From IMG/VR virus record IMGVR_UViG_3300044647_002431, positions 50,712 through 114,711 of that record: a stretch of 64,000 nucleotides of DNA. One strand, 5' to 3'. Positions within the stretch are counted from its first letter, which is position 1. Every line of letters begins with the position of its first letter. This document shows, piece by piece, positions 18,454 to 41,556 of this stretch. The notes beneath the pieces were generated by a model. It made no database searches and had not been told where the DNA came from. It saw nothing but the letters and a program-made list of their open reading frames with translations. Both the position numbers and the translations under genes were made by a program. Source of the stretch: a virus.

Positions 18454-19752
18454 TTATATTACATCTGTCAGAGGGTATTCATAGTAATCTGGTTTGTCAG
18501 CAGAAGTAATTTGTATATTGTCGATGTATATAGATAATTCCCTTATGTCTGTTCCCATAGACAGTCGCTGGGGGATAATGTAGTCTGAATCAATGATCAT
18601 ATTTATTGGTTCTAATATTTCTATAACCATATGCCCGTCTAGCAACAAGTTATTTGTGTCTATATTAGATCCATTAATATTGATATTGATATATTGAATT
18701 TTATAAGGTTTTTTAAAACTGATTTTAGCTTTATTAATATTTCTAAAGTTAAGACAATTATTGCCAGATAACCAAAGGATACTATTATTATTGTCACTAG
18801 TATATTTATTAGAATTATAAATTATAGGTTTAGTATCAGAATAAGAAGTAGATCTATTATCAAAAAATCCCTTAATATCTTTTGATAAATCATAGTTTGA
18901 CAAGAGTTTATTAGTAAATGAATAAAATCCTAAATTGTTTTGTTCAATATAATTTTGAGAATTTAATGTATTGATTAAGCCGTATCTGCTATGATAGTTT
19001 CTGTTATGAATCATTCCATGATATTGATGAGTTGCATGACAATTTTCTATGTATGCTGTTTTTTTGTAGTTGGTTGCAGAGATGAATTGTTTGCTTTTTT
19101 CTATATAATCTAATATTTGGACTTTGTGATCAGAAAAAACCCTATCAAAAATATTCATAGAAATATAGTGACTATCAATAAAAAAAGGTACTATATTTAT
19201 AGTATCTCCTCCACCAACCAAACATTTATCAAATAAACCCCCAACATAGGATAAATAGTTTTTTCTATATGCTATAAATCCTCCAGGATTACCATCATTT
19301 ATATGATTGTTTAAAGTTGAGAATTTTACAGTACTTTCATAATATCTATCCATACCTAAACCATCTGGTCCAATATATTTAATTGTTTCGAAACATTGAA
19401 CCATAATATGATTTTTTAATAAATTACAAGTTTTATAGTGCCAATTATTATTATTTAAAATAATGTCACTATCTGCTACAACAATATATTCGTATAGTCT
19501 TGGTATTTCTTTCAGCAAAAAATTTATAGCAGATTCTTTATGCCACAGGGGACTATTGTTATGGATAGTAAAAATTGTACCAGTATTGGTATCGAGATTA
19601 GAGGTTGTATTCTCTGGTATTATCTCACAAATATATAAATGATTACCTAGACCACATCCATCAATAAAAGCAACAAATTTATGAAAATTTTCAATAACTA
19701 ATGGTGAATTTTGATGATTATAAATTGTAGTCAAAATTGCTAAATTATTCAT
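18454..19752 (-). CDS. GT-A type glycosyltransferase with C-terminal beta domain
   Basis: A 432-aa protein. The first ~260 residues follow a GT-A nucleotide-sugar transferase: AILTTIYNH at the start, VVADSDIIL (DxD-type metal site, about 92-100), and GNPGGFIAYRKNYL as the acceptor-side loop. The last ~110 residues are beta-rich and full of Asn/Ile, perhaps a carbohydrate-binding or capping domain. It is the most downstream gene of the glycan island and overlaps the next upstream gene by 8 bp. Donor and acceptor sugars cannot be read. Confidence 0.75.
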   Translation of the reverse strand: MNNLAILTTIYNHQNSPLVIENFHKFVAFIDGCGLGNHLYICEIIPENTTSNLDTNTGTIFTIHNNSPLWHKESAINFLLKEIPRLYEYIVVADSDIILNNNNWHYKTCNLLKNHIMVQCFETIKYIGPDGLGMDRYYESTVKFSTLNNHINDGNPGGFIAYRKNYLSYVGGLFDKCLVGGGDTINIVPFFIDSHYISMNIFDRVFSDHKVQILDYIEKSKQFISATNYKKTAYIENCHATHQYHGMIHNRNYHSRYGLINTLNSQNYIEQNNLGFYSFTNKLLSNYDLSKDIKGFFDNRSTSYSDTKPIIYNSNKYTSDNNNSILWLSGNNCLNFRNINKAKISFKKPYKIQYINININGSNIDTNNLLLDGHMVIEILEPINMIIDSDYIIPQRLSMGTDIRELSIYIDNIQITSADKPDYYEYPLTDVI

Positions 19753-21892
19753 TAAATGTTTCTATCTTAAGATTAGTTTTATCTCTCATTAATTTTAAGA
19801 ATTGTACCCTATTAATTTCTTGATATTTTTTCATTCCTTTTGTTATGTCTGTTCCGCTAGAAGATCCTTCGTCGTGAATAGCAACACATCTTGGTTCATA
19901 TATGGTTTTTAATCCGTTAATATGTGCTCGATATTGCCACTCGCTATCTTCATAATACATTTTATCAAGCTGCTCGCTTAGTGGACCAAGTTTATCTATG
20001 GCGTCTCTTCTCATATATAATAAGCATCCAGAGCAATATCCAGTATAGTGTGGGATATTAAATTGAGGATCATCAGCATCTTGATGCCTTCCCTTATTTC
20101 TGCCAGTACCATCAGAATATAGCTCTGCCCCAGCTTCTGCTAGCTTACCATTTGGATATAATGTTTTTCCTCCAGCAGCAGCAATGTAGTCAGCACTATA
20201 TGCACTAGAGTATAAATAATTTAACCAATAATTATCTAAAATTTCTATATCATCATTAATTAATAATATATCAGAAGATTGATATTTTGTATCATTAATA
20301 ATTTTATTGTTTGGTATGATAAAATACTCATTGGTGTTATTTTTTATGTATATTATTTTATCTGTATTGAATTTATTTTTTATGTATTCCGATTGGTCTT
20401 GAATCCCATTATCTGTAATAACTATATTATAATTTGAATATTTTGTTTTTTCTAATATGGTCTCAAGACATTTTTCTAATTTTTCTGGTTGATTGTAAGT
20501 TACTATACTAATAATTATATGTTTATCTTGTAATGAATGCTTAAGAATATTAGTTGCTGATGTTCTAGATACTATTTGTGATAAATGTTTTTGTGCCGAT
20601 CTGCCCAGATTAACCTTTTCTTTTAGAGATAAAGAGAAGAAGTATTCTAGCTCTTCTATAAAACCTTCTTCTGAATTTGTTATTAATGCATTTTGTCTAT
20701 GGGCAAATTTTATTCCTTCATTTCCTATATCAGAAGTAAGTATAGGCACCCCACACATTCCAGCATCACAAATTTTCCCTTTAATACCTGCTCCCCAAAA
20801 CAATGGAGCAATCATTAAACAAGATTTTTTATATAAATCATTAAGATTATCTACTTGTCCAAGATATTGTATTTCTGGAATATTCTGGATCTTTTGTTGA
20901 ATTGATTCATCTAAATACGGACCAGCTATCAACAGGCAGGGTTTGTTTTTTAAAGAATGATATGTTTTAGTTTTCTGAAATTTTGTATAAATATTAATAG
21001 TCTTTTTAACCGCTTCGACATTTGGGCCGTGATTATAATTACCTATAAAAATTATGTGTTTTCCTAATTTAATATTTTTACTATCATGTATATTGCTTAG
21101 TATTTTAATATTGTATCCGTAACCTAGTTCTTTTTGAATATGTTTTTTATCGTCCTCTGTTATGGCGAATATTGTGTTAGCTTTTGAGTATACATTTTTT
21201 TCTATATTTTTCCTATCTTCTATATTATTTTGGGTCATTAATAATTGCCCAGAATTTTTACCTCTTTGTTCTCTTACCCAGTGAACATCCACGCTGTCTA
21301 CTAAAATTTTAATACTAGGAAATAATGATTTAACAATATCTATGTACTGGTTTCCTATATCGTACCACGAAAAAATTGCATTATCAAAAATTATTTTATT
21401 ATCAGCTGCTTCTTGCAAGTACTTATTTAAGTATATTCCTTTGTGTATATTTGGTACAAAAACTGGTATATTTAATTCTTTTACTATTTCTATATATTTG
21501 CGATTATTATAACCGTTACATAAAAACCATACGTTATATTCGAAATCAAGTTTTAAAATCTTCAGAATCTGTAACAATCTATTACCTCCACTACTACAAT
21601 CAAAATCGGGAGCCATAGGAGAAAAATACAATAAATTTTTACCATTATTCCAAAATTCAGGAACCTTTATGTTTATTGTGTCTAGGTTTTCAATCATAAT
21701 TTGTTTATAGTTTCTACCTTCGCCTATTCCGAACATCAGGTAGTGCTCTGTGGCCTTTTGACTGGTGTTTACCTCACACTGAATAAGATCAGGATGCATT
21801 GATGTATAGATCATGGGGTCAAAATCTTCGGGAATGAGATGTTTGTTGTTTTCAACTAATTGTTTTGTATATTCATTAGAGATCCATTTCAT
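19745..21892 (-). CDS. Two-domain glycosyltransferase (GT4-like plus GT2-like)
   Basis: A 715-aa fused enzyme. Residues 20-60 form a short module with FDPMIYTSMHPDL and HYLMFGIGEGRNY, also found in a separate gene at 39307. About 75-450 reads as a GT-B/GT4 transferase with IFIGNYNHGPNVEA and, near residue 365, the UDP-binding-type loop APLFWGAGIKGKI. About 465-700 is a GT2/GT-A domain with IISIVTYNQPEKL, LLINDDIEI (DDD-like metal site) and YYEDSEWQYR. The two domains would add consecutive sugars. Domain fusions like this are usual in bacterial O-antigen or glycoprotein loci. Confidence 0.82.
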   Translation of the reverse strand: MKWISNEYTKQLVENNKHLIPEDFDPMIYTSMHPDLIQCEVNTSQKATEHYLMFGIGEGRNYKQIMIENLDTINIKVPEFWNNGKNLLYFSPMAPDFDCSSGGNRLLQILKILKLDFEYNVWFLCNGYNNRKYIEIVKELNIPVFVPNIHKGIYLNKYLQEAADNKIIFDNAIFSWYDIGNQYIDIVKSLFPSIKILVDSVDVHWVREQRGKNSGQLLMTQNNIEDRKNIEKNVYSKANTIFAITEDDKKHIQKELGYGYNIKILSNIHDSKNIKLGKHIIFIGNYNHGPNVEAVKKTINIYTKFQKTKTYHSLKNKPCLLIAGPYLDESIQQKIQNIPEIQYLGQVDNLNDLYKKSCLMIAPLFWGAGIKGKICDAGMCGVPILTSDIGNEGIKFAHRQNALITNSEEGFIEELEYFFSLSLKEKVNLGRSAQKHLSQIVSRTSATNILKHSLQDKHIIISIVTYNQPEKLEKCLETILEKTKYSNYNIVITDNGIQDQSEYIKNKFNTDKIIYIKNNTNEYFIIPNNKIINDTKYQSSDILLINDDIEILDNYWLNYLYSSAYSADYIAAAGGKTLYPNGKLAEAGAELYSDGTGRNKGRHQDADDPQFNIPHYTGYCSGCLLYMRRDAIDKLGPLSEQLDKMYYEDSEWQYRAHINGLKTIYEPRCVAIHDEGSSSGTDITKGMKKYQEINRVQFLKLMRDKTNLKIETFNE

Positions 21893-22562
21893 AATATTTT
21901 TCTAATAATTTAATTTCTAGTTTGATTGTGCTGTATATAATATTTTTTATTTTTGGGCTAATTTCAATTTCTATAATATTATCAATAGTAGATCGATTTA
22001 TGTGATAATTAGGTATATGCAATTCAAAAGGATTTGAAGAATTAAAAATTTCACATAGTTTTTGTTTTTCAACTTGAAAACAGAATTGATAATCATTAAT
22101 TATTTTTTTTGCTTCTTTATATTTTTGTTCTAATGAAATATCTAAAAATTTACATTTAGTTAAGTAATCTATTGTTAAATTACCAAATTGTTCTAGGTAA
22201 TTTATTAATACGTCTTCAGCTATATTATTAATGTGTATATTGTAAAAAAAATGAATATGACTAATTATTCTTGATATTGGGTTTCTAAGAGTAAGTATTC
22301 TATAAGTATCTTCTATAGGTAATTTAAAACTATTCTCAATAAAAAAAGTTGGACTATGGTCTACGAAAAGAAGAGTGTCTGTATGGATAGCTTCTATTAG
22401 GTGGGGTTTTTCATATAAACAAATATTTGAATGTGTATGCTCTGATATATAAGCTGGAGCTTGTTGAAAGTAAACATTATCTTTTATTCCGTCATATATA
22501 CTTTTCTTTAAACTTGATCCACCACATCTTGGTATATGATTTAATACTAAATACTTGAACAT
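21876..22562 (-). CDS. Sulfotransferase-family protein
   Basis: A 228-aa PAPS-type sulfotransferase candidate. The 5'-phosphosulfate loop reads HIPRCGGSSL (9-18) and the 3'-phosphate motif RNPISRIISH (about 98-107), both in expected order. It would move sulfate from PAPS to a sugar hydroxyl, adding negative charge to the island's glycan. The catalytic base is not obvious. It overlaps the upstream end of the two-domain transferase gene by 17 bp. Confidence 0.72.
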   Translation of the reverse strand: MFKYLVLNHIPRCGGSSLKKSIYDGIKDNVYFQQAPAYISEHTHSNICLYEKPHLIEAIHTDTLLFVDHSPTFFIENSFKLPIEDTYRILTLRNPISRIISHIHFFYNIHINNIAEDVLINYLEQFGNLTIDYLTKCKFLDISLEQKYKEAKKIINDYQFCFQVEKQKLCEIFNSSNPFELHIPNYHINRSTIDNIIEIEISPKIKNIIYSTIKLEIKLLEKYYEMDL

Positions 22563-22598: not shown

Positions 22599-23423
22599 TT
22601 ATATACGATATTCTATTTTATCAAAAAAAATATTTGGATCAAAATCCCAGAAATAATTTAGACTCTTATTTTGGTTTAATTCAAGAAGTTTAGTTCCAGA
22701 CAAACAGTTTTCTTTTAATAAAGAATATAGTTCTTCATGAGTTAAGGGTTTATCAAACAATGAGCTTTGTCCCCTATTATCACCATGAATATGGTTTGCA
22801 CTCCATCCATATATTCCTATGTGACCATGCCGGTTGGTTTCTGGGGCTATTGTAGTCATATTATTTTTGACTAATATATTTTTTAAATCTAAATCTAGGC
22901 CGTCAATCTCTTTTATAGAATCGTAATATGGCTTGACATATTTTATAAACTTAAACCTACTAATTAAACAGGATCGTATTGATGTTGCTGAACGAATTAT
23001 TTTATTAGGATTTCCTTTTGGTTTTTCCCATGCTCCTATGTGGAAGTATAGTATATCATCTTTGTCTAGTGCTCTGTCTTGACATAATTGCTCACACAGC
23101 ATTAAATAGTCTTTACTGATTAAAATGTCGTCTTCTATACTTATTACATAATCATAATCCGTATTATCAAAAGTAAATTTTACAGAATCGTACCAGCTAT
23201 ATTTACCAGAGTTTCTTGGCCAATTGATACGAATATATTTGTCTGTTATGACTTTGTCGTAGTCTACTGAATATCCATGTATTGGGTGGGGGTCAACAAA
23301 AACATAAGTCTGGAATTTATCAGAATTTTCTGAGTTGTTTTGATATTCAAGAGATAATTGCAGCATGGCTGATCTATCATAATAAGTGGATCGAACTATT
23401 GCTATATTTTGTGTTTTTTTCAT
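22599..23423 (-). CDS. GT-A glycosyltransferase-like protein
   Basis: A 274-aa protein with a GT-A plan: it starts AIVRSTYYDRSAMLQLSLE, has SIEDDILISKDYLM (about 97-110) with the EDD metal site of GNT-I-like and GT2 transferases, and ends with aromatic acceptor-side segments (GIYGWSANHIHG). Found within the glycan island but separated by small gaps from both neighbours. Exact family uncertain. Confidence 0.6.
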   Translation of the reverse strand: MKKTQNIAIVRSTYYDRSAMLQLSLEYQNNSENSDKFQTYVFVDPHPIHGYSVDYDKVITDKYIRINWPRNSGKYSWYDSVKFTFDNTDYDYVISIEDDILISKDYLMLCEQLCQDRALDKDDILYFHIGAWEKPKGNPNKIIRSATSIRSCLISRFKFIKYVKPYYDSIKEIDGLDLDLKNILVKNNMTTIAPETNRHGHIGIYGWSANHIHGDNRGQSSLFDKPLTHEELYSLLKENCLSGTKLLELNQNKSLNYFWDFDPNIFFDKIEYRI

Positions 23424-23463
23424 ATCGTTTCTAGCTGTGACTCAGTTTGTTTTGCATTAATAC

Positions 23464-24084
23464 TTAAGTAGTATATGGGACTTGACTATACGTTTTATCT
23501 GTTCTCCAGTCAACATGAACAAGTCTTATTTTTTCAAATAAATTTATTGCCATAATACCAGACTGTTTAGCTAATTCTCTAAAATGATTTTCGCAATTCA
23601 TTACTCCTAAATTCCAATCTTTATTGAATTCAATATTAGTATGTTTATAAATCCAAGCATCTTGACAAATCTCCGGATTAATTTGTCTTGTGTTATTTGG
23701 GTTATAAGTACCTCCAGATGGAATTATATTGCCATCTTTTGTTAAGTCTTTTCTTGTTAATACATATAATCTATTTTCCCATTCATTTATTTGATCCAAA
23801 AAAGATAATGATTCATCAAAATAAACATCAGAATTAGATAGTATTTTTATATCTTCTGGATATTCTTTATCAGCATAGTCCATCCACATTTTATAGGAAA
23901 GTCTTGTTTGTATTGGAACAACAATCAACTTTTCATTGAAAATGTTGTTGAACTCGCAATTATCAACAAATAGAACTAGTTTGTCTATTCTTTCATTAGA
24001 AAGGTTTTGATATAAACAGTAAAGATTGTAAGTTAGAATTTCGGGTGTGGCTTTGAACCACTGGGTGAATAGTATTTTATTCAT
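23464..24084 (-). CDS. Glycosyltransferase-like protein (GT-A, ILSNSDVYFD type)
   Basis: A 206-aa protein with KILFTQWFKATPE at the start and ILSNSDVYFDESL near residue 83, a DxD-type motif seen in small viral and bacterial transferases. I chose the ATG at 24084: GGAGG lies 5 nt upstream of it, whereas the in-frame GTG at 24096 is part of that ribosome site. The start overlaps the stop of the frameshifted gene upstream. Substrate unknown. Confidence 0.6.
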   Translation of the reverse strand: MNKILFTQWFKATPEILTYNLYCLYQNLSNERIDKLVLFVDNCEFNNIFNEKLIVVPIQTRLSYKMWMDYADKEYPEDIKILSNSDVYFDESLSFLDQINEWENRLYVLTRKDLTKDGNIIPSGGTYNPNNTRQINPEICQDAWIYKHTNIEFNKDWNLGVMNCENHFRELAKQSGIMAINLFEKIRLVHVDWRTDKTYSQVPYTT

Positions 24085-24299
24085 TAAGTCCTCCACTAGT
24101 TTCCCTTATAATATCGTTCTGGGACAACTCTGTCCAGTATATTTCATAGGCTATAGTGTCTTCTAATGCTTCAAACAAATGATATTCTTTTGGTTTTACT
24201 ACGGACATTTCTTGATCAGATAATGTTGTTTCATCAATAAGGTCGTAGTCATTTTTCCAAACTTTTATTTTTAATTTCGTTTAGTGATAATATTTTCAT
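24077..24299 (-). pseudogene. Frameshifted small gene starting at the shared island junction
   Basis: From the ATG at 24299 the frame reads MKILSLNEIKNK, then stops. Removing one A from the A4 run (24263-24266 on the plus strand) continues into 60 codons (KVWKNDYDLIDETTL ... WTELSQNDIIRETSGG) that end in a TAA overlapping the ATG of the next gene, exactly the layout of an intact gene. A 73-aa protein therefore seems to have been disrupted by one base, or misread in a homopolymer. No family recognised. The first 12 residues recur at 26430, 34617 and, less exactly, 39275. Confidence 0.6.
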
Positions 24300-24322
24300 G
24301 ATAAAAGCTTTTTTATAATTTC
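24265..24322 (-). repeat. 58-bp perfect direct repeat, copy 1
   Basis: Identical to 34583-34640, and similarity continues to about 24360/34678. On the minus strand it spans a gene end (EIIKKLLS-stop) overlapping a gene start (MKILSLNEIKNK). The two copies lie 10.3 kb apart in the same orientation. Confidence 0.9.
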
Positions 24323-24362
24323 AAAGACTTTCTGTGGACATTCTTCTGAAAATTCTTTCAGA

Positions 24363-25103
24363 TTAGCGAGATCTTTTTTCATGCATGTTTTTTTCCAAAG
24401 ATACAGACAAATCTTTTTCTTTGTAGTTTTCTGTCCTAAAGTAGTCGCCATGTGGGATATGAAAAATTGGTACAAAATTTTTATCAAATTTAAGTCGTTG
24501 TCTATTTAATCCTAATTTCTCTAGTCTTGAGTATAAATCACAATCATCATAACCATAACCATGCTGATTTCCTTGGTATAATCCGGCATTAATTATGTGT
24601 TCTTTTTTTGCACACAAAAATCCATTTAAATATTTCAAGAACCCCAAGGAATTGTCCAACGATTCATCTCCCCAATGCCCGGTAAAAAACTCAGATTCCA
24701 AATCAAAACTTAGCCAATCGCACAAATCAATATAAGGATTCAAGATGTAATCGACATCTAATTTTAGAATATTTTCATAAGTACAATTTTCAATTCCAAT
24801 ATTATAAACTTTAGACTGATTAAAGTATTCTTCATCATGCGATCTTATAATTATGATTCGTTTATCTAAAGATTCAAAGTATTTTGAATTAAAATCAGAA
24901 GAAGAACAATCGACTATTACTATTTCTTTAATTTCTGGTTTCATTAGCCAAGAATTTATGGAAGTTTGTAAAACTCTGGACCTGTTTTTCAAACCAACCA
25001 CAACAGATAAGTTTGAAATGGGAGCATATGACAATGGATTTTTTTTTGTTATTTCTAATTGATTAGCTCCTATGATACTTGGAACTTGGCTAAAAGTGCT
25101 CAT
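24363..25103 (-). CDS. GT2 glycosyltransferase, 3' end frameshifted
   Basis: A 246-aa GT2 transferase: VVVGLKNRSRVLQTSI at the start, VDCSSSDF, LKLDVDYIL (metal site, about 126-134) and the GYGYDDCDLYSRL motif (about 190) of galactosyltransferase-like C-terminal domains. The frame ends abruptly in MHEKRSR. If one A is dropped from the A6 run at 24374-24379, the chain continues HEKDLANLKEFSEE ... EIIKKLLS and ends at 24296 by an ATGA overlap. That tail closely matches the end of the 34614-35561 product, so the present stop is probably caused by an indel, real or artefactual. Confidence 0.78.
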   Translation of the reverse strand: MSTFSQVPSIIGANQLEITKKNPLSYAPISNLSVVVGLKNRSRVLQTSINSWLMKPEIKEIVIVDCSSSDFNSKYFESLDKRIIIIRSHDEEYFNQSKVYNIGIENCTYENILKLDVDYILNPYIDLCDWLSFDLESEFFTGHWGDESLDNSLGFLKYLNGFLCAKKEHIINAGLYQGNQHGYGYDDCDLYSRLEKLGLNRQRLKFDKNFVPIFHIPHGDYFRTENYKEKDLSVSLEKNMHEKRSR

Positions 25104-25178
25104 TTTTTTCTCACCTTGTTAAGTAGTTTATTATCGAGTATAAATTACTATAGTTGTGTTCTAGAAGGTATTTTTTTG

Positions 25179-25739
25179 CTACAAGTATTTAAACCAGCAA
25201 CTATTTTCTACCTTATCCGGTTTTCCAAAAAATTCATTTACGGCTTTCATTACTCCTGGCCAACCTTCTGTGTAATCATGGCCGGAAATTATGCTATTTT
25301 TTTTCATTTTTGGATACCAACATTCTATATCTTTTTTTACTGATTCGTAGGAATGTCCTGCGTCTATGAATATAGAATCGACCGAGAAGTTGTCAAATTC
25401 TTTGGCAGCTTCATGGCTTTTTGATATTATGTAGTTCAAGTTATCTTTTACTGGGGTCGTATTTTTAATAAATTGGTCTAGTATGTTCTTATCTTGTTTG
25501 TTGTAAACACTCGTCTCGGCAATATCTGATAGTTCCGAAGTTCCTTCAAACGTGTCTATCGTATAAAACTTTAGGTTTCTTTTTTGTTTTATAATTTCTG
25601 TTGCTATGAAGCATGTGCTTTTCCCTTTCCACGCCCCTAGTTCAACGAGAGTTCCACCATCCGGGCAATGGCTGAGTAATTCTAGATATTGTTTTTCCAT
25701 GTTGAACCACCCATCAACTTTTTGATAAAAATGTTCCAT
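25179..25739 (-). CDS. Class I SAM-dependent methyltransferase
   Basis: A 186-aa Methyltransf_24-type enzyme. Motif I is VELGAWKGKST (about 32-42), motif II TIDTFEG, and SIFIDAGHSYESVKKDI (about 121-137) is characteristic of this family, which often methylates sugars in polysaccharide and antibiotic loci. The domain is essentially complete. It belongs to the glycan island and is flanked by short gaps. Confidence 0.8.
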   Translation of the reverse strand: MEHFYQKVDGWFNMEKQYLELLSHCPDGGTLVELGAWKGKSTCFIATEIIKQKRNLKFYTIDTFEGTSELSDIAETSVYNKQDKNILDQFIKNTTPVKDNLNYIISKSHEAAKEFDNFSVDSIFIDAGHSYESVKKDIECWYPKMKKNSIISGHDYTEGWPGVMKAVNEFFGKPDKVENSCWFKYL

Positions 25740-25782
25740 TTTTTCCTTGCGTTATTTTAAAAGGTTTTTTTGTGAGATCTTT

Positions 25783-26337: not shown

Positions 26338-26349
26338 TTGTCCCCCTTT

Positions 26350-26430
<81 letters not shown>

Positions 26431-26470
26431 GATAAAAGTTTTTCCGGAATATCTATAGTTAAATTAATCA

Positions 26471-28388: not shown

Positions 28389-28394
28389 AATTTT

Positions 28395-31186: not shown

Positions 31187-31196
31187 CCTACAATTT

Positions 31197-31838: not shown

Positions 31839-31895
31839 AATGTTTTATTTTATTTCTTTTACTCCCCAAATGTGTAGTACTTTTTTCATTTATTT

Positions 31896-32930: not shown

Positions 32931-32949
32931 TTTCTTAAACTACCCCTCT

Positions 32950-34523: not shown

Positions 34524-34524
34524 G

Positions 34525-34617
34525 TTGCTCTTCTATATTCCTTATTCCTTATTGGACTACAGATGATTAAATTTTTTTAATCTTATTTTTAATTTCGTTT
34601 AGTGATAATATTTTCAT
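34525..34617 (-). pseudogene. Decayed gene start at a junction repeat
   Basis: From ATG 34617 the frame gives MKILSLNEIKNKIKKI and stops. The following 40 nt still resemble the region after the start at 39275 (TTAATCATCTGTAG versus TTGATCATCTATGG; CCAATAAGGAA versus TCAATAAGGAA), showing that both descend from one gene that is now broken by several changes here. Confidence 0.6.
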
Positions 34618-34640
34618 GATAAAAGCTTTTTTATAATTTC
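34583..34640 (-). repeat. 58-bp perfect direct repeat, copy 2
   Basis: Identical to 24265-24322. It spans the last codons of the transferase gene (EIIKKLLS) and the start of the decayed gene. Recombination between the copies would delete or invert nothing but the 10.3 kb between them, since they are direct. Confidence 0.9.
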
Positions 34641-35561
34641 GAAGACTTTGTGGGGATCCTCTTCTGAAAACTCTTTTATATTAGCCTTGTATTGAATATG
34701 TTTTTCTCCCCACTCTCCTAACCAAAAGTGATTGCTTGATTTTGTACTATCACGATTATAGGTTGTGCCTAATGTTGAAAAACTTAATAAAGTTTTATTT
34801 GGATCTTCTATATTTTGTCTATTGATAGCAAAAGTAAAGGGTCCAGATGCTCTACCAATTATTACATCGCACTTTGTGCTTAAATATGATATTTCATTCA
34901 GATCTGAGCCATTTTCTTTTTTTATTATTTCAGATGCAAACAATACATTCGGATAGCTATCTCTGTCAAAATTAAAGTGATTCGTAAGTATCCATATTTT
35001 ATCTGTATAAATTTTTGCCAGCTGTAGAAATATTTTAGAAAAGTCAAAATTTGATGATTGACTAGACATTGTTTGGTTATTGCAAGCTAAAACCATAATT
35101 TTGTTATTACTGCTAAATTCGTCTATATTTTTTGTGTTGATATAATCAAAATTTACACTTGGAAAAAAATCAAGAGGATCTTCGGATATGTCTTCTATGT
35201 TTATTCCAAAATAACTAAAAATATCCTTAAACATAAAATATAAACAATCAAAGTTAATTCCATTGCTTAATTTAATATACTTATCATGCTCGGCACGATA
35301 CCAGGTATTTAAGACTACATTATTCTCATAAGTATGTATTAATTTGTTTTCTTCTGTATTTTTAAAATCTGTTAGATGTTTGATTAATTTAAGATCCTCT
35401 GTTAGACACGGGTCATTTTTGTGGCTATAAAAAAGACCATATTCATGAAACTGGCTGACTGCTTTGGCTGAACCTTTCCATGGATGGCAAAACTTTGAAA
35501 TAAAACCCCTGGAGACATGAATATCTCCGTTATTGTATTTATTGTAAAAAATAATGTTCAT
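34614..35561 (-). CDS. Glycosyltransferase-like protein of uncertain family
   Basis: A 315-aa protein. It begins NIIFYNKYNNGDIHVSRGFI and has a C-terminal IGRASGPFTFAINR loop, layout similar to GT-B/GT9-like transferases, whose nucleotide-binding half contains a Gly-rich loop and Thr. The closing 20 residues (KEFSEEDPHKVFEIIKKLLS) match the frameshifted tail after the GT2 gene at 24363. It overlaps the aminotransferase gene by 4 bp. Assignment to an exact family is not possible by eye. Confidence 0.55.
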   Translation of the reverse strand: MNIIFYNKYNNGDIHVSRGFISKFCHPWKGSAKAVSQFHEYGLFYSHKNDPCLTEDLKLIKHLTDFKNTEENKLIHTYENNVVLNTWYRAEHDKYIKLSNGINFDCLYFMFKDIFSYFGINIEDISEDPLDFFPSVNFDYINTKNIDEFSSNNKIMVLACNNQTMSSQSSNFDFSKIFLQLAKIYTDKIWILTNHFNFDRDSYPNVLFASEIIKKENGSDLNEISYLSTKCDVIIGRASGPFTFAINRQNIEDPNKTLLSFSTLGTTYNRDSTKSSNHFWLGEWGEKHIQYKANIKEFSEEDPHKVFEIIKKLLS

Positions 35562-36646
35562 TTCAAATACTCTTTTATTTTATTTACTATATATTCTATT
35601 TGTCCGTCAGTCAGAGATGGATATGATGGTAATATAATACACTGATTATTTAGCAGGTCTGAGTTTAAATTTTTTGACTTACTACACATAATATGCTTAT
35701 GTTTTGTTATATCGTAGAACATTGTTCTGGTCTCTATTCCAGCCTCAAACAAATAAAGTTGTAAATTTTGTTTCTGGGAAAGATTAAACTGATTGAGCCT
35801 GATTCCGAGCATCCATTCAGAGTGTTTTGTGTTTTTTTCAACTTTTTGAAAAGACACAGTTGTTAGTTCTTGAAGTAGGGACTTGTATAGTTCAAATATG
35901 TTGTGTTTTTTACATTGAATTTCAGGTAAGCATTCTAATTGTCCATATAAAATAGCTGCTTGAACATTGGTCATCCTGTAGTTGTAGCCCAAAACATCAT
36001 GTATAAATTTTTCATTTGTTTGTCCTTGGGACTTTACTTTATTGATATACTCAAACACATCGTCGTCATCTGTTACGAATGCCCCACCTTCGCCAGATGT
36101 AATTGTCTTATTTCCGAAAAATGATATGGATGAAGCAAATGACTCTGTTCCCGTATACTTATCGTTATATTTGCCTAAAAAGCCTTCGCAGTTATCTTCC
36201 AGTATGACTGTGTTTGGAAATTTTATTTTTAGTTCAGGCACATTAACAACGTTTCCGATATTATGCACTACCAATATTGCTGAATCGTCGTCAATTATTG
36301 AGTCTAATTTAGAGATGTCAAAATTCCAGGTGTCAATATCAGAATCAATTGGAATAAGCTCATAGTCCTCATACAAAAAGGCATTCCATGCTGCTACATA
36401 AACATTGCTTGGAACAATAATTTTTTTAATATTAGGATGTTTGTATCTTAAAGCAATAGCCATGAGATGTGTTGCTGATGTTCCGTTGTTCGTTAATATG
36501 ACTCTTTGATAGCCAAGGATATTTTTTACTTTATTTTTAGACGAATCCAGGTACTCTCCTTGTGAAGAAACCCAACCAGAGTTTATGGCATCGTGTGCGT
36601 AACTTAGATTTTCCTCAGTAAAATATGGTTGATAAATAGGTATCAT
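35558..36646 (-). CDS. DegT/DnrJ/EryC1 aminotransferase (perosamine-synthase-like)
   Basis: A 362-aa PLP-dependent sugar aminotransferase of full length. It begins IPIYQPYFTEENLSYAHDAI, has NNGTSATHLMAIAL (about 52-65), EDNCEGFLG (PLP-stacking Asp, about 149-157) and SFFGNKTITSGEGGAF (Schiff-base Lys, about 174-189), closing with GYNYRMTNVQAA. It resembles perosamine synthase and the PseC/LegC enzymes, consistent with a 4-amino-sugar or a nonulosonic acid precursor. Second DegT enzyme in the island. Confidence 0.88.
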   Translation of the reverse strand: MIPIYQPYFTEENLSYAHDAINSGWVSSQGEYLDSSKNKVKNILGYQRVILTNNGTSATHLMAIALRYKHPNIKKIIVPSNVYVAAWNAFLYEDYELIPIDSDIDTWNFDISKLDSIIDDDSAILVVHNIGNVVNVPELKIKFPNTVILEDNCEGFLGKYNDKYTGTESFASSISFFGNKTITSGEGGAFVTDDDDVFEYINKVKSQGQTNEKFIHDVLGYNYRMTNVQAAILYGQLECLPEIQCKKHNIFELYKSLLQELTTVSFQKVEKNTKHSEWMLGIRLNQFNLSQKQNLQLYLFEAGIETRTMFYDITKHKHIMCSKSKNLNSDLLNNQCIILPSYPSLTDGQIEYIVNKIKEYLK

Positions 36647-36663
36647 TATGTCCTGTATTATCC

Positions 36664-37515
36664 TTATTGTATTAAATGCTTTTGAAATTCGTCCACGCTA
36701 CTAAACAAATTTTTGTTTCGTTTTGTATAAAAAGCATTTCTATAAATGCCGTTTGTTAAAGAGACCAATTTATCTGTAAAAAGAGATAAACAAAAAAATC
36801 CGCCACCACCAAAAACGTATGTCTTGTTAGAATTCATAATTATTCCACAATCTTCTAAAATTTTACTCAATGAAAATGTATTAAAATCAAAGTTTTCTAT
36901 AGTTAAATCTATTATTTTATTTTGAGCAATATTTTCTTTACAATTTTGATAAATAGAATATATGTTCTTTTTACTATGAAGTGCGTATTCTCCAGAGTAT
37001 TCTACTTGTCTTTCTCCAAGTAGAACAACTTTACCCTCAAAAGTATTTACTGAGCGGAAAAAATTTGTTGAAACTTGAGAAAAAACATCTAGATTCAAGT
37101 CTCTTACCTTTGTGAAAATTACAATATAGTTATCTTGATAAACCTTGTTTTTAATAATAAGTTTGTTTTTTATAGTGTCAATTACTGATGAATTATTTAG
37201 AATTTTACCGTCTCTTAGGAAGTCTGTGTCCCAAATGCGGTTGGTCTCATTTATATTATTTAAAATTTTGATATCATAATTTGATAAAAAGTATTTAATG
37301 TATTCATGGCAAAATATTTCGTATTCACCGCTATTTTTTCTATAAATACGCAACGTATCTTTAGATAGAAAATACTCGACAGGTTCATTTTCTTTATGTT
37401 CTGCAAGTATTGCGCTACAGAAAAAAATAAGATCGCCTATACCAATACATTTAATTAAGTATTTTGTGTTAATATAATTAGTATGTTTTGTGGGACCTTT
37501 GTATAAACTTACCAT
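36664..37515 (-). CDS. Glycosyltransferase-like protein (GT-B/GT9-like)
   Basis: A 283-aa protein whose opening KCIGIGDLIFFCSAILAEH resembles the donor/acceptor domain of GT9-like heptosyltransferases (GxGD). A later stretch YVFGGGGFFCLSLF is Gly-rich like the nucleotide-binding half. Not enough to name a family. It overlaps the small gene upstream by 38 bp, so the true start could be later. Confidence 0.5.
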   Translation of the reverse strand: MVSLYKGPTKHTNYINTKYLIKCIGIGDLIFFCSAILAEHKENEPVEYFLSKDTLRIYRKNSGEYEIFCHEYIKYFLSNYDIKILNNINETNRIWDTDFLRDGKILNNSSVIDTIKNKLIIKNKVYQDNYIVIFTKVRDLNLDVFSQVSTNFFRSVNTFEGKVVLLGERQVEYSGEYALHSKKNIYSIYQNCKENIAQNKIIDLTIENFDFNTFSLSKILEDCGIIMNSNKTYVFGGGGFFCLSLFTDKLVSLTNGIYRNAFYTKRNKNLFSSVDEFQKHLIQ

Positions 37516-37786
37516 TATCTAAATTTTCTCCACTCAATTTAGCCTCTATTATTTCAATTATTTTTTGATCCACTTCGTTAATTAATTGGTTTCTTTGAAC
37601 ATTGAGATCACATGCTTTTTTAAGACATTCCCATAAATTTTTTGCTCCATTTTCATCTTCAAAATATTTTTTTTTGTATTCTTCAAAACTCATTCTTCGT
37701 ATTTCATATAATAATTCTTGATTATTCCACATTTTTAAATCAACCGTAGTTAATTTGTCAATCACGCTACCGAGTGTATCAGCCAT
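37478..37786 (-). CDS. DUF4254-like small glycan-locus protein
   Basis: A 102-aa protein beginning ADTLGSVIDKLTTVDLKMW, typical of small DUF4254-like proteins found in surface-glycan clusters (GS-x-ID-K-L-x-x-L-x-K-x-W). The rest is helical with many Lys and Glu. Function unknown. It overlaps genes on both sides (38 and 8 bp). Confidence 0.6.
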   Translation of the reverse strand: MADTLGSVIDKLTTVDLKMWNNQELLYEIRRMSFEEYKKKYFEDENGAKNLWECLKKACDLNVQRNQLINEVDQKIIEIIEAKLSGENLDNGKFIQRSHKTY

Positions 37787-38459
37787 TGTTTGCTCCTTGA
37801 GTGTTAGAATATATTAATTTATTGTTCCATTTAAAGCTTGGATATTCTTTGTTGTAACTTTGGATCATCTCATAGTTTTTTGATAAGCTTCCCATGCTAA
37901 GATAACAGTTGTTAAAATAATAAGAATCTATTTTATAGCCCAATTCTTTCAATATAGATAAGCGCTCACTCCAATCATACCCACATTCAATAACTAAAAT
38001 ACTAGGTAGCAATGTTTTATCCATTAATTTCCAAGAATTTAATACTGTTTTTTCATGACCCTCAATATCTAAAACTACTATGTCAAAAACTATTTTAAGT
38101 TTTTTAAGTAAGCTATCATAGGTTATTGCCTCAACTTCAATCTCCTTAAAAGTAGATCCGTATTGACTTAGTTCTTCTAGATGTTCTTGAGAATATTCGC
38201 AACTGCTGTTTGCCGGATGAGAAGAAATAATAAATTTTATAACTCCATCAAGATTAGACAGAGCAAAGTTGAGGGTGTTTTTTCTAAATTTTTGCAACAA
38301 TAGGTGGTCTTCTTTGTTTGCCTCAATGCACCAGCAATTATTGTCTGGTTCAAACTCTAGAGTTTCTTCTCCATGTGTGTGGGAGCCACACTCTAAAATG
38401 TTTAAATCAATCCAATTTAATTGGTAAATATCTTTTAGTATCTGACTAATTTTTTTCAT
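37779..38459 (-). CDS. FkbM-family methyltransferase
   Basis: A 226-aa methyltransferase of the FkbM kind, O-methylating sugars or polyketides. Visible: LNILECGSHTHGEETL (motif I region, about 19-34), CIEANKEDHLLL (acidic loop), LSNLDGVIKF, and VLDIEGHEKTVL (about 128-139), the family signature. The gene overlaps its neighbours by 14 and 8 bp. The glycan of the island is likely its target. Confidence 0.8.
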   Translation of the reverse strand: MKKISQILKDIYQLNWIDLNILECGSHTHGEETLEFEPDNNCWCIEANKEDHLLLQKFRKNTLNFALSNLDGVIKFIISSHPANSSCEYSQEHLEELSQYGSTFKEIEVEAITYDSLLKKLKIVFDIVVLDIEGHEKTVLNSWKLMDKTLLPSILVIECGYDWSERLSILKELGYKIDSYYFNNCYLSMGSLSKNYEMIQSYNKEYPSFKWNNKLIYSNTQGANNG

Positions 38460-39033
38460 TTTGACTCATTTCAATATCTTTTTGCATCATAAGAAGCTTT
38501 TCAATATTTCTTGTCTTAATAATTTTGATATTAGTTCCATCAGCGATACAAACAGAACCGGCAGGTATATTTTTGCGAATAATTGAACCAATGCTAGTTG
38601 TAGCCCCGTCACCAATATTTACACCCGGCAATACCGTTGTCCGACTACCTAAAGACACCGCTTTACCTATATAAATATCTCCACATCTAACTTTTTTGTA
38701 TTGTTCAGGAATGTACGGTAATGAGGCGAGGTGGTCGCCAATAAAGTCATCAGTTGCAGTGTATAAATAAGCACCATTAGACATTACGGAACAAGAATCT
38801 ATTATTATTTTTCCACCAGACCCAGATAAAACACTATGTGGTCCTATATGAATATTACTTTTTAAGCAAATATTACCCTTAAGTATACAATAAGCATCAA
38901 TACGTATGTTGCTACCGATTTCCATATTCTTTTCGCCAACAAATACGCAGGTAGAATCTATTTGTATATTTTTACCTATAGACTTAAAGCCAAAATCTTG
39001 AAGATCGTGTTCTGTGAGGTATTTGGATTTCAT
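38446..39033 (-). CDS. Left-handed beta-helix (hexapeptide) acyltransferase
   Basis: A 195-aa transferase with hexapeptide turns: VGEKNMEIGSNIRI, NICLKSNIHIGPHSVL, IIDSCSVMS, and the C-terminal IGKAVSLGSRTTVLPGVNIG and GDGATTSIGSIIRKNI. This is the LacA/WbbJ-like family that O- or N-acetylates sugars, using acetyl-CoA in a trimer. It would acetylate the amino sugar made by the DegT enzymes. Upstream of it lies a pseudogene. Confidence 0.85.
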   Translation of the reverse strand: MKSKYLTEHDLQDFGFKSIGKNIQIDSTCVFVGEKNMEIGSNIRIDAYCILKGNICLKSNIHIGPHSVLSGSGGKIIIDSCSVMSNGAYLYTATDDFIGDHLASLPYIPEQYKKVRCGDIYIGKAVSLGSRTTVLPGVNIGDGATTSIGSIIRKNIPAGSVCIADGTNIKIIKTRNIEKLLMMQKDIEMSQNEKN

Positions 39034-39048
39034 ATTCCCCAGTCCATA

Positions 39049-39275
39049 TCAGGCATCTTGGCCACTTTTAATTTGGCTAATGATTCTCACGGCTCTAGAC
39101 TCCCTTTGTAGTCTGTTTCTTTTTGTGTATAATTGCAGCGCTATATTTTTTTCTTATGTGTGATATCTTGTCAATATTTGAAAAAGACTTTGCGAAATGT
39201 TCTTCTATGTTCCTTATTGAACCATAGATGATCAAGTTTGTTTTTAGCTTCGTCTAGAGATGATATTTTTCTCAT
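39049..39275 (-). pseudogene. Decayed gene related to the island junction starts
   Basis: From ATG 39275 the frame reads MRKISSLDEAKNKLDHL and WFNKEHRRTFRKVFFKY, then a TGA. Reading on and allowing one shift in an A7 run gives about 30 more protein-like codons (LQLYTKRNRLQRESRAV then RIISQIKSGQDA) to a TGA at 39049. One stop plus one frameshift indicate a dead gene of roughly 75 codons. It fills most of an otherwise 273-bp gap. Confidence 0.6.
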
Positions 39276-39306
39276 ATTTGTAGATTAGAAACCCATGTTT
39301 TTCTGC

Positions 39307-39672
39307 TTATGTTGAGAAATATTGGATTACTTTATTGTTAAAACTTTCTTTTCTATTGTACTGATGAATAATTGAATACGCCTTATTCAGGTTGTCTGTG
39401 ATTTTAATTCCGTCAATATTAATTCCGTGACTATTGATGAGCTTATCAGAAAAACCAAAACCAGCATCTACGGGGCCGTCGTGTAGTTTCGCATATTTAT
39501 AGAACCTATGTTCTTTTTTCCCGTGTAGAATGTAGTGTCTAATAGCATTTTCTTCTGTAAGAATACCCTGTTGTTTTAGATCAGGATTGAGGTTTAAATA
39601 TATTGTATAATTAAAATCAGAAGGAATGAGATCTGGTCTCTTTTGAGAAAGATTTTGTATATATTGACTCAT
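39307..39672 (-). CDS. Stand-alone FDPxxY-type glycan-locus module
   Basis: A 121-aa protein. Residues 12-58 carry RPDLIPSDFNYTIYLNLNPD and HYILHGKKEHRFYKY, the same module as the start of the two-domain transferase at 19745 (IPEDFDPMIYTSMHPDL, HYLMFGIGEGRNYK). In bacteria this module sits in front of many glycosyltransferases. Here it is separate and followed by a polar tail, so it is either a docking subunit or the remaining front of a cut-down transferase. It overlaps the RgpF-like gene by 4 bp. Confidence 0.6.
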   Translation of the reverse strand: MSQYIQNLSQKRPDLIPSDFNYTIYLNLNPDLKQQGILTEENAIRHYILHGKKEHRFYKYAKLHDGPVDAGFGFSDKLINSHGINIDGIKITDNLNKAYSIIHQYNRKESFNNKVIQYFST

Positions 39673-40625
39673 ATTTTATTTTGTATTATAGTCTGAAAAT
39701 TAAGCTTGTGATATTTTTGATACGAACAACTGATAAAATCTTGCCACTTGATAATAAGACTGTCTTCGGTGTCGTTCAATACGGATCCCCATAGATTAGG
39801 ATTTTCTCTGATATAGCACTTTCGATTATGTAATACAATTATATGAAACTTATTCTTATCTGAGTAATTGCATATTAGTTTATATTGTTTTTTGCGTCTG
39901 GCTTCATATATCCATAATTTATTATAGTAGACTAGATAACAAAAAACTCTTTCCAGAGAATGACAAAACGTCCCTCCGTCTATTCTGTCTTCTACTTTTG
40001 CTACTTCTCGATTTACAAGAGACAACAAATAAGATGATGATTCTGTATTAAAATATTTTTTGAACAGAGATGTTCTGGACATAAACATTGTACCAGCAAT
40101 AAAATTTTTATTAGAAATTTTATTATATTTAATATTTAAGTAATTACATAATGATTTTATTTTTTTATGATTGGAAGTTTCGTAGTTTTTTAGTAAAAGA
40201 GCTGTATTAGCAATCATGCCGCATTTAGGATTAGTCATAAAATTATTAATATTAGACAATAGAGTTTCTTTGGAACCTATTAAATCATTAAATAACATGC
40301 CTCTCCAATCCGCTAAATATCTTTTAGTTAAAATAGATATCTTAGAATGTAATTTAATAAAAAGCGGATGTTCGTTAGGATCTATATTAGAAATTTCATG
40401 TAAGAAAGAAGATACATCTCCTCCAATATTTGGATAAATTTTTATGCTAAAATCACTAATTGAATTTTGTATATCGTCAATAACAACCTTGTTAGCGACT
40501 GAATGATCTTCACACAAACACATATATAATTTAATATATGGATTAAGTGGCTTAAGTAAAGATAGTAGCTCAGGCCATATCTCTGTGTGGTACAACCACA
40601 CTATAACAGCAATTTTTTTAGGCAC
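39669..40625 (-). CDS. RgpF-like rhamnan-synthesis glycosyltransferase (copy 2)
   Basis: A 318-aa protein of the RgpF family (rhamnose-glucose polysaccharide assembly). KKIAVIVWLYHTEIWPEL opens the chain; IGGDVSSFLHEI, FIKLHSKISIL and WRGMLFNDLIG (about 65-115) are family marks. The frame runs on upstream to 40724, but the GTG at 40625 is the right start: it aligns with the start of the neighbour, has GGAG 10 nt upstream, and overlaps that gene's stop by only 8 bp. It is a tandem paralogue of 40618-41556. Confidence 0.75.
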   Translation of the reverse strand: MPKKIAVIVWLYHTEIWPELLSLLKPLNPYIKLYMCLCEDHSVANKVVIDDIQNSISDFSIKIYPNIGGDVSSFLHEISNIDPNEHPLFIKLHSKISILTKRYLADWRGMLFNDLIGSKETLLSNINNFMTNPKCGMIANTALLLKNYETSNHKKIKSLCNYLNIKYNKISNKNFIAGTMFMSRTSLFKKYFNTESSSYLLSLVNREVAKVEDRIDGGTFCHSLERVFCYLVYYNKLWIYEARRKKQYKLICNYSDKNKFHIIVLHNRKCYIRENPNLWGSVLNDTEDSLIIKWQDFISCSYQKYHKLNFQTIIQNKI

Positions 40626-41556
40626 GATGATAGAACTCCGTTTTGTGTGTGTTAGAGTAATCTTTAAAATATCTGTATTTTTTTTGTTTACTAGAATCTG
40701 TAATATATAACCAATAAATATCAAAATATTCTGGATGGTGATCTATAATTTTCCCGTATATGTGTGCGTTTTCTTGAATATAACATTGATTATTGTATAA
40801 ATGAACCAGATTCAAAAATGACTCAGATGTTAACTGATTAGTTAGATCGGATTGTATTTTTATGGTTGGAATATCAGATGCTCCTATATTAGAAACATAA
40901 CCAAATACTCTTTCCATAGCATGACAATATGTTCCTATTTTTTTTTCTTTTACTTTTAAAGTTTCTTGCGACAGCAAACTATGAATATAGTCAAAATGAT
41001 CAAGAAACACTCGCAAGTTACTGCACTTGGACATAAACATCGTCCCCGCACAAAAGTCTTTGCTGTTCGACACAACGTTGCAACTCTGCATAATTTCTAT
41101 TATTTTATTTGTATGAAATGATTCTCTATTATGAAAAATAAAGAATTTATTACCCAACATGTTATATTGATTATTTTCTAATTTATATAAATTATTAGCT
41201 AAAATAGTTGGAGATCCTATTAGATCATTTAAGAGCATTGCTCTCCATTCACAATGTCTATAAACTCCCCATTTGCTTTTTTTAGAATGTATTTTAATAC
41301 AGTATTCATATTTATCAATAATTTGTTCTAATTGATATAAAAAGGGTAATATATCCGCCCCTTCATTATTAAATAAATTAATATAGATATTAGAAAAATA
41401 GTTAGTAAATAATTTGATTGTTTGATCATCACAATCTTTTGGTAATCCTAAAAATAAATCTATATATTCTTTTAATGGATATAATAATTTAAAATACTCT
41501 TCTCTGAGCTGTTCATGAAATAGCCACAAACATACTGCTATTTTTTTAGTTTTCAT
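40618..41556 (-). CDS. RgpF-like rhamnan-synthesis glycosyltransferase (copy 1)
   Basis: A 312-aa RgpF-family protein opening MKTKKIAVCLWLFHEQLREE, with NNEGADILPFLYQL, YCIKIHSKKSKWG and CEWRAMLLNDLIG (about 70-115), then a matching C-terminal half (FCAGTMFMSK, GTYCHAMERVFGY). It shares this full plan with the next gene, so the two arose by tandem duplication and may add successive residues. It is the first gene of the glycan island in transcription order. Confidence 0.78.
   Translation of the reverse strand: MKTKKIAVCLWLFHEQLREEYFKLLYPLKEYIDLFLGLPKDCDDQTIKLFTNYFSNIYINLFNNEGADILPFLYQLEQIIDKYEYCIKIHSKKSKWGVYRHCEWRAMLLNDLIGSPTILANNLYKLENNQYNMLGNKFFIFHNRESFHTNKIIEIMQSCNVVSNSKDFCAGTMFMSKCSNLRVFLDHFDYIHSLLSQETLKVKEKKIGTYCHAMERVFGYVSNIGASDIPTIKIQSDLTNQLTSESFLNLVHLYNNQCYIQENAHIYGKIIDHHPEYFDIYWLYITDSSKQKKYRYFKDYSNTHKTEFYHRA

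What the first reader, a model, noticed from the sequence alone, without database searches (positions are those of the whole stretch)
18454..41556. A 23-kb surface-glycan biosynthesis island inside a phage genome
About 25 consecutive genes cover nucleotide-sugar synthesis (NeuA, FdtA/DegT, second DegT, acetyltransferase), assembly (GT2, GT4, GT8, RgpF, GT-A) and decoration (methyl-, sulfo-, pyruvyl-). No flippase, polymerase or ligase is present, so the product is likely a defined glycan attached to a virion protein or lipid carrier rather than an exported polymer. This would be one of the most elaborate phage-encoded glycans.
Basis: partly seen in the sequence, partly recalled or inferred. 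Interest (0 to 1): 0.85.

Follow-up and report, generated by a model that had tools for sequence, protein, structure and literature searches.

The report
Swappable sugar-making gene island in phage
A large bacterial virus carries a 23-kb block of sugar-building and sugar-decorating genes at one fixed spot where some relatives carry nothing and others carry different sets, so these viruses appear to swap the tools that decorate a surface, most likely their own particle.

Summary
Window 18454-41556 has 28 ORFs, all on the minus strand, 95% coding; 16 match sugar-pathway or capping families above curated cut-offs. It lies in a tailed-phage genome and is not a chimera: a second contig is 99.999% identical across both junctions. 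Relatives show what it is: an accessory island at one fixed site between the dCMP deaminase and a small Transgly_assoc gene. Among 20 relatives with both flanks the site is empty (4-102 bp) in 10 and holds 2.9-22.6 kb in 10. Cassettes moved recently: 99.3% nucleotide identity with one relative and 98% with another, against 76-87% and about 78% outside. In the second relative the shared cassette also has neuB, of which this phage keeps only the tail end. No flippase- or polymerase-like polytopic protein was found in 171 kb of this phage or in two apparently complete relatives. The target is inferred: virion-protein glycosylation most likely, host-envelope remodelling the main rival, DNA glycosylation unlikely. 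Phage glycan islands are known (cyanophages, pelagimyophages), so it is not uniquely elaborate; new are the lineage, the empty/filled site, the swap evidence and the sialic-acid-like module.

The parts
17850..18401 (-). dCMP deaminase, fixed flank of the island (one side of the empty site)
   Evidence: phrog_174 E 2.2e-31; a homolog in all 23 records tabulated
18454..19752 (-). putative GT-A glycosyltransferase with C-terminal beta domain
   Evidence: no Pfam/PHROG; DxD-like motif; 4-sequence model pLDDT 50.7 with weak GT matches
19745..21892 (-). GT4-GT2 fusion glycosyltransferase
   Evidence: PF13692 1.9e-13 and PF00535 6.6e-12; relatives at 54-80% identity in other viral contigs, one of them partial
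21876..22562 (-). putative sulfotransferase
   Evidence: PAPS-loop-like motif only; no Pfam, no credible PDB match
22599..24096 (-). two putative GT-A-like ORFs (22599-23423, 23464-24096)
   Evidence: direct reading only; homologs in phage relatives
24363..26337 (-). GT2 and two methyltransferases; swapped cassette
   Evidence: PF00535, PF13578, PF13489; 24287-26389 is 99.3% identical in DNA to G020
26471..27798 (-). FdtA ketoisomerase and compact DegT aminotransferase
   Evidence: PF05523 1.3e-33, PF01041 7.7e-34; catalytic-lysine motif kept, middle segment missing
27795..30232 (-). methyltransferase ORFs (27795 and 29612 by Pfam; 28395 and 28855 by reading)
   Evidence: PF13578 5.3e-16, PF08242 3.3e-9; reading
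30229..31116 (-). GT2 glycosyltransferase
   Evidence: PF00535 6.6e-10
31197..31838 (-). NeuA-type CMP-nonulosonate synthetase; recombination breakpoint inside the gene
   Evidence: PF02348 2.6e-25; 1qwj E 4.8e-30; 98% nt identity to G027 begins at 31439
31896..32930 (-). polysaccharide pyruvyltransferase
   Evidence: PF04230 8.6e-14; 99% in four other contigs, probably one virus; family in 2 of 26 earlier records, one of them this virus
32927..32953 (-). retained 3' end (about 27 nt) of a deleted neuB gene
   Evidence: same letters as the end of neuB in G027; neuB and a 95-aa ORF absent between the neighbours here
32950..33666 (-). ORF of unknown fold, possibly a nonulosonate transferase (inference from position)
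   Evidence: 98% in the same four contigs; no Pfam at 0.1; model useless
33663..34523 (-). GT8-like glycosyltransferase
   Evidence: PF01501 2e-4, below cut-off; DxD motif
34614..35561 (-). ORF without family, possible GT-B (reading only)
35558..36646 (-). DegT aminotransferase, LegC-like
   Evidence: PF01041 5e-69; TIGR04181 8.3e-62, below cut-off
36664..37786 (-). two ORFs without assigned function
37779..39033 (-). FkbM methyltransferase and hexapeptide acetyltransferase
   Evidence: PF05050 2.4e-14, PF00132 2.3e-6
39307..39672 (-). chimeric remnant: its C-terminal 52 aa are those of a 269-aa ORF in G027
   Evidence: 98% over 52 aa; sequences
39669..41556 (-). two RgpF-family proteins
   Evidence: PF05045 1.7e-17 and 2.4e-19
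41696..41950 (-). Transgly_assoc small membrane protein, other fixed flank
   Evidence: PF04226 5.5e-8; 4-102 bp from the dCMP deaminase in 10 relatives
24254..39285 (-). four copies of a 59-nt repeat near gene ends (24254, 26385, 34572, 39227): candidate joints for cassette exchange
   Evidence: role inferred
52559..53671 (-). glycosyltransferase outside the island, shared by relatives
   Evidence: phrog_2170 1.9e-23; 39-56% identity in the 14 relatives that show it, 45% in G027
55035..58287 (.). second variable glycan site: GT8-like ORF, GT_PLOD, methyltransferase-like ORF (reading), truncated PF11397 GlcNAc transferase, MGAT2-like ORF
   Evidence: PF25342 5.7e-29, PF11397 1.7e-33; PF05060 1.9e-5 and PF01501 0.019 below cut-off; site sizes

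Best explanation
The region is an accessory, exchangeable glycan-biosynthesis island at a fixed site in a lineage of roughly 240-kb tailed phages. Shown: the site exists empty and filled; cassettes of about 1-2 kb were exchanged recently between phages, with one breakpoint inside a gene; no island ORF has more than one crude membrane segment. Inferred: the enzymes act in the host cytoplasm, take nucleotide sugars mainly from the host (plus phage-made amino-deoxy and, in a relative, nonulosonate sugars), and build and cap (methyl, acetyl, pyruvyl, perhaps sulfate) short glycans on virion proteins, so that swapping cassettes changes the surface of the particle. The confidence given is for the virion-protein target; for the exchangeable-island part alone it is about 0.95.
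For: Empty/filled site: 10 empty (4-102 bp), 10 filled (2.9-22.6 kb) of 20 relatives with both flanks. Exchange: 24287-26389 99.3% to G020 with blocks outside the island 75.7-87.4%; 31439-33777 98.1-98.7% to G027 with core blocks averaging 77.8%; 0 of 13 and 0 of 66 core proteins (hits covering at least 60%) reach 97% identity to those relatives. Island ORFs have 0-1 crude TM segments; no ORF above 5 in the record, G001, G009 or G027, while E. coli WzxE, WzyE and WecA score 10-12; Polysacc_synt_3 0 of 12 records with 14 of 14 controls ringing. In G009 a GDP-mannose dehydratase, a methyltransferase, an RgpF and two ORFs with sulfotransferase-like motifs (my reading; no Pfam match) lie in the plus-strand structural region with the terminase and a collagen-like tail fibre of 272 G-X-Y triplets. 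PF11397 occurs in 10 of 12 records and GT_PLOD here; that these families act on protein side chains is recalled knowledge.
Against: No acceptor protein is identified: no G-X-Y repeat protein in this record or in G027; only G009 has the clear one. GT_PLOD is in 2 of 31 records and both are this phage; PF11397 is truncated here and absent from 2 of 12 records; the dehydratase family is absent from both records of this phage. WzzE, a control, scores only 2 membrane segments, so a Wzz-type protein would be missed. About 70 kb of this phage is unseen. RgpF, pyruvyltransferase and NeuA are more familiar from cell-surface polysaccharides, and pelagimyophage authors read similar genes as host O-chain modification. 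Soluble GTs could also work on the host's own lipid-linked precursors.
Confidence: 0.5

Rival explanations
1. Host-envelope remodelling: the island's soluble transferases alter LPS, capsule or S-layer precursors of the infected cell, using the host flippase and polymerase, to block superinfection or hide the cell.
For: RgpF, pyruvyltransferase, FdtA/DegT and NeuA are classic surface-polysaccharide functions (role recalled). Pelagimyophage authors favour this for similar genes. Phage-encoded enzymes that alter nonulosonic acids of a host capsule are in print (PMC12053666, PMC6586298; search listing with starts of abstracts only). The genes sit with replication genes; early timing is inferred.
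Against: No polytopic protein of the Gtr, Wzx or Wzy type seen in this phage or two apparently complete relatives; glycan genes are interleaved with structural genes in G009.
Confidence: 0.35
2. DNA glycosylation: the transferases put sugars on modified bases of phage DNA.
For: A dCMP deaminase and nucleotide genes flank the island; phage GTs often modify DNA (recalled; also said).
Against: No thymidylate synthase/dCMP hydroxymethylase family protein in 12 of 12 records searched (of 27 in hand then), control ringing in 9 of 14 genomes. The TET/JBP search was uninformative because no control rang. Pyruvyl, methyl and acetyl capping and changing gene sets do not fit a DNA role (inference).
Confidence: 0.05
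3. Filler: the genes are passively acquired DNA that fills the head (stuffer DNA), with no selected function.
For: Decay signs: neuB deletion, chimeric remnant, shortened DegT; RgpF copies with internal stops in G004, G005 and G009 matches. Stuffer DNA was raised for cyanophage LPS clusters. Ten relatives live without anything at the site.
Against: 95% coding with long ORFs; the commonest families in filled sites of relatives are again glycan enzymes; several empty-site relatives carry glycan genes elsewhere.
Confidence: 0.09
4. Assembly chimera with a bacterial polysaccharide locus.
For: Lower GC (29.1% against about 33%).
Against: Second contig 99.999% identical over 69,697 bp across both junctions; the same site and the same cassettes in other phage contigs.
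Confidence: 0.01

Closest known systems
LPS gene clusters of large cyanomyophages (P-SSM2, S-SM2, S-SSM7)
   Same: Phage-borne clusters of glycosyltransferases, sugar epimerases and a methyltransferase of unknown target (PMC3037559 passages; P-SSM2 annotation).
   Different: Different lineage and place; here a fixed site beside the dCMP deaminase with an observed empty state; amino-sugar, pyruvyl and CMP-nonulosonate genes; nucleotide-level cassette exchange.
Host recognition cluster (HRC) of pelagimyophages
   Same: Large hypervariable island rich in glycosyltransferases (PMC7029224, passages incl. abstract).
   Different: The HRC lies inside the structural module and carries tail fibres; this island lies beside replication genes and shows no tail family in Pfam.
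Virion glycosylation of mycobacteriophages
   Same: Phage glycans on capsid and tail tube proteins (as cited in PMC12619734; primary paper not read).
   Different: Few GT genes there; no nucleotide-sugar or capping island is known to me there (recalled).
Clade-specific glycogene clusters of mimiviruses
   Same: Virus-encoded clusters for bacterial-type rare sugars; 21 genes in the Cotonvirus cluster (PMC9614988, passages).
   Different: Eukaryotic giant viruses; here a tailed bacterial virus with a fixed swap site.

Membership tests
Phage hypervariable glycan/LPS island | Contiguous cluster of sugar-biosynthesis and glycosyltransferase genes within a phage genome | tested here: met
Phage hypervariable glycan/LPS island | Content varies among related phages at a syntenic place | tested here: met
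Pelagimyophage-type host recognition cluster | Island lies in the structural module and includes tail fibre genes | tested here: not met
   flanked by dCMP deaminase/RNR; no tail family in Pfam for 28 ORFs nor in PHROGs for the 10 scanned
Wzx/Wzy O-antigen or capsule locus | Flippase and polymerase (polytopic membrane proteins) | tested here: not met
   about 70 kb of this phage unseen
Gtr seroconversion cluster | Polytopic GtrA flippase and membrane Gtr transferase (recalled) | tested here: not met
   no ORF above 5 crude TM segments; the families were not searched by name
T4-type DNA glucosylation | dCMP hydroxymethylase supplying hydroxymethylcytosine | tested here: not met
   PF00303 0 of 12; this phage is known only for about 171 kb
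Virion-protein glycosylation system | Glycan on a structural protein | not testable with these tools
   needs virions; indirect support
Nonulosonate (sialic-acid-like) pathway | NeuB synthase together with NeuA CMP-synthetase | tested here: not met
   NeuA but no NeuB in G000 and G001; G027 has both in the shared cassette

The most novel reading that the evidence does not exclude
This lineage runs an exchangeable virion 'glycocode': each phage assembles, in the cytoplasm with its own soluble enzymes, a different capped glycan on its particle, in some members including a phage-made sialic-acid-like sugar (NeuB and NeuA), and changes it by swapping one- to few-gene cassettes between phages at short shared sequences, as bacteria change O-antigens.
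Probability: 0.3. Interest if true: 0.8.

Novelty: new variant of a known kind. Interest (0 to 1): 0.52.

Why it matters
If right, the surface identity of these viruses evolves by cassette exchange as O-antigen loci do in bacteria, but on the phage side. The empty and filled forms of one site in otherwise similar genomes are a natural comparison that would let an isolate pair settle the open question of what phage glycan islands modify: the particle, the host surface, or nothing. The phage-borne neuB-neuA cassette, present in one relative and cut in this one, is a specific, testable prediction of a sialic-acid-like sugar made by a phage.

Tried and rejected
Chimera: rejected by G001. Host identification: one genome-contig scan with the RNR gave only two MAG contigs (Flavobacteriales, 84%; SAR202, 60%); both carry further phage genes, so this is weak and no host is claimed. 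Collagen-like acceptor: considered the general acceptor after G009, rejected as general because the G-X-Y scan found none in this record or G027. Structure of 32950: single-sequence model pLDDT 34.2, not used; PDB sequence matches for it were implausible. Structure of 18454: pLDDT 50.7, Foldseek best E 7.6e-4 with query TM 0.25, used only as a hint of GT-A. TET/JBP route to modified DNA: control silent, no conclusion. Moraphages (PMC12619734, abstract and passages) were considered as the same lineage: not tested by sequence; no tape measure gene was identified in them, unlike here. Paper searches for phage glycan or collagen-type systems gave little or nothing. My reading of G009 146295-148277 as GT25-like was not confirmed by Pfam.

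Selection caveats: the relatives come from 80 kept of 546 RNR relatives, 10 GT relatives and 5 plus 5 cassette loci, and were picked for contig length and GT hits, so 10 empty of 20 is not a population frequency. Family searches were given 12 records each, not all in hand. Rows left out of the family count: ORFs under 90 aa, plus-strand ORFs under 200 aa, and two ORFs across fetch boundaries. Of the 46 families only 25 are shown, and I did not establish what the small fillings of G014 and G022 hold. The TM count is a crude Kyte-Doolittle scan of ORFs of at least 70 aa.

Full report
Setting. The window is positions 50712-114711 of a 114,711-bp virus record. The record has a 5797-aa ORF whose first 2000 aa match tape measure families, and the window has DNA polymerase, primase, DnaB, UvsX, ribonucleotide reductase and dCMP deaminase on the minus strand just before the island. 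A second contig, IMGVR_UViG_3300044635_001663 (G001), matches record 45015-114711 at 99.999% over 69,697 bp and runs 56.6 kb further, so about 171 kb of this phage can be read. Two relatives look complete (my inference; the tool gave no completeness): G009 (238,135 bp; synteny runs across its ends with like distances, 9.40 and 9.44 kb) and G027 (243,821 bp; 43-bp identical ends). The lineage therefore seems to have genomes of about 240 kb. Named phages are distant: the island has no megablast match among 50,697 phage records, the RNR is at most about 47% identical, and the GT4-GT2 protein has no match there.

The observation. Between 18454 and 41556 there are 28 ORFs, all on the minus strand, 95.1% coding. 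Sixteen have sugar-pathway or capping families above curated cut-offs: GT4-GT2, GT2 twice, several methyltransferases, FdtA, DegT twice, CTP_transf_3, pyruvyltransferase, FkbM, hexapeptide, RgpF twice. Two have a family below cut-off and ten have none. NeuA is well supported by solved structures.

Fixed site, empty and filled. The flanks are the dCMP deaminase (17850-18401) and a small Transgly_assoc gene (41696-41950) followed by conserved genes. I compared 23 records: G001 (the same virus), two in which a contig end cuts the site (G005, G023), and 20 with both flanks. Of these 20, ten have the two genes 4-102 bp apart (G003, G004, G010, G012, G013, G015, G016, G018, G021, G024) and ten hold 2.9 to 22.6 kb (G007, G008, G009, G014, G019, G020, G022, G025, G026, G027). 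For G022 the second flank is the 42900 gene because the small gene was not found. In a Pfam scan of 92 ORFs from filled sites of 11 relatives, 46 families matched; of the 25 shown the commonest were glycosyltransferases (GT2 in 8 ORFs, GT4 in 5, GT-D-like in 5) and sugar-nucleotide dehydratases/epimerases (4). A second variable site lies between GMP reductase (53676) and a volactin gene (60564): 4.5-21.6 kb in the seven relatives where both could be placed, 5.8 kb here. Some empty-site phages have glycan genes elsewhere, for example the GT4-GT2 gene of G004 and G024.

Cassette exchange. Against G020, 24287-26389 (a GT2 and two methyltransferases) is 99.3% identical in DNA while blocks outside the island are 75.7-87.4%. 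Against G027, 31439-32953 and 32953-33777 are 98.1% and 98.7% while core blocks average 77.8% with a maximum of 91.6%. None of 13 (G020, within the 38 kb fetched) or 66 (G027) core proteins with hits over 60% of their length reaches 97% identity, while five shared island proteins are 97.9-100%. The four contigs that carry the second cassette are probably one virus: three have RNRs of equal score, the fourth shows none. One breakpoint lies inside the NeuA gene. ORF 39307-39672 is a chimera whose last 52 residues are 98% those of a 269-aa ORF in G027. Short repeats recur: a 59-nt unit four times, a 103-nt pair at 91% and a 67-nt pair at 97%. They are candidate joints; their role is inferred.

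The nonulosonate cassette. In G027 the order is NeuA, pyruvyltransferase, neuB (PF03102 E 1.7e-65; best solved matches SpsE and pseudaminic acid synthase, E 3.2e-30 and 5e-30), a 95-aa ORF, and the 32950 homolog. In the window, neuB and the 95-aa ORF are missing but the last 27 or so bases of neuB remain between the neighbours, so the window form most simply derives from a neuB-bearing one by deletion. NeuB was found in 1 of 12 records searched and NeuA in 7 of 31. Thus this phage would need host-made nonulosonate, or the module is decaying.

No export machinery. A hydrophobicity scan that gives 10-12 segments for E. coli WzxE, WzyE and WecA (but only 2 for WzzE) gives at most 5 for any ORF of the record, G001, G009 and G027. 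A flippase family search was negative in 12 of 12 records while all 14 control genomes rang. About 70 kb of this phage is unseen.

What is modified. The favoured target is virion protein. In G009 the plus-strand structural region includes the terminase, a GDP-mannose dehydratase, a methyltransferase, an RgpF, two ORFs with sulfotransferase-like motifs (my reading; no Pfam match), and a 1081-aa collagen-like tail fibre. The dehydratase family occurs in 8 of 12 records, but in neither record of this phage. PF11397 occurs in 10 of 12 records, truncated in this phage, and a GT_PLOD protein lies at window 55661-56338 but in no relative (2 of 31 records, both this phage); that these families are known from protein-linked sugars is recalled. 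Against it, no acceptor was found in this phage or G027, and similar genes have been read as host O-chain modification. DNA glycosylation has no dCMP hydroxymethylase to start from (0 of 12); the TET/JBP search decided nothing. The stuffer idea is weakened by intact coding, though signs of decay exist.

Known kinds. Sullivan et al. 2010 (PMC3037559; passages seen) report large LPS clusters in large cyanophages with unknown function, and P-SSM2 shows such genes at about 193-205 kb and 236-241 kb. The pelagimyophage paper (PMC7029224; passages, abstract among them) reports a hypervariable host recognition cluster with glycosyltransferases. The giant-virus review (PMC9614988; passages) describes clade-specific glycogene clusters. 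My searches gave no paper that I could tie to this lineage; the moraphages were not tested by sequence, and the library lacks most subscription journals. Verdict: a new variant of a known kind.

Noticed in passing
record 2402-19795 (L002), upstream of the window; G027 13704-33068: Tape measure ORF of 5797 aa here, with 5292-aa (G009) and 6454-aa (G027) counterparts: very long tails are implied.
   Followed up: partly
window 511-4821: The DNA polymerase profile phrog_405 is split over two ORFs with an exonuclease-subunit ORF between them; G009 keeps the order but has one more 816-aa ORF in between.
   Followed up: no
window 58284-58817: SET-domain protein (PF00856, E 3.3e-10) in a phage.
   Followed up: no
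window 60564-61565: Volactin family actin-like protein (PF25216, E 1.3e-63).
   Followed up: no
window 61568-62716: Trypsin-like protease (PF00089, E 5.2e-18) with two crude membrane segments.
   Followed up: no
window 53676-54728: GMP reductase over the NCBIfam cut-off, with a homolog in 15 of 22 relatives' fetched stretches.
   Followed up: no
window 42900-43823: Conserved ORF (69-96% in relatives) without Pfam; the letters look papain-like (reading).
   Followed up: no
window 56951-57580: The N-terminal part of the lineage's PF11397 GlcNAc transferase is missing here and a short unrelated start stands in its place.
   Followed up: partly
record 47927-50756, just upstream of and into the window: Two more phrog_2170 glycosyltransferase ORFs between the tail genes and the replication genes, with homologs in G009.
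   Followed up: partly
L099:6571-9816 (G009): 1081-aa collagen-like tail fibre with 272 G-X-Y triplets.
   Followed up: partly
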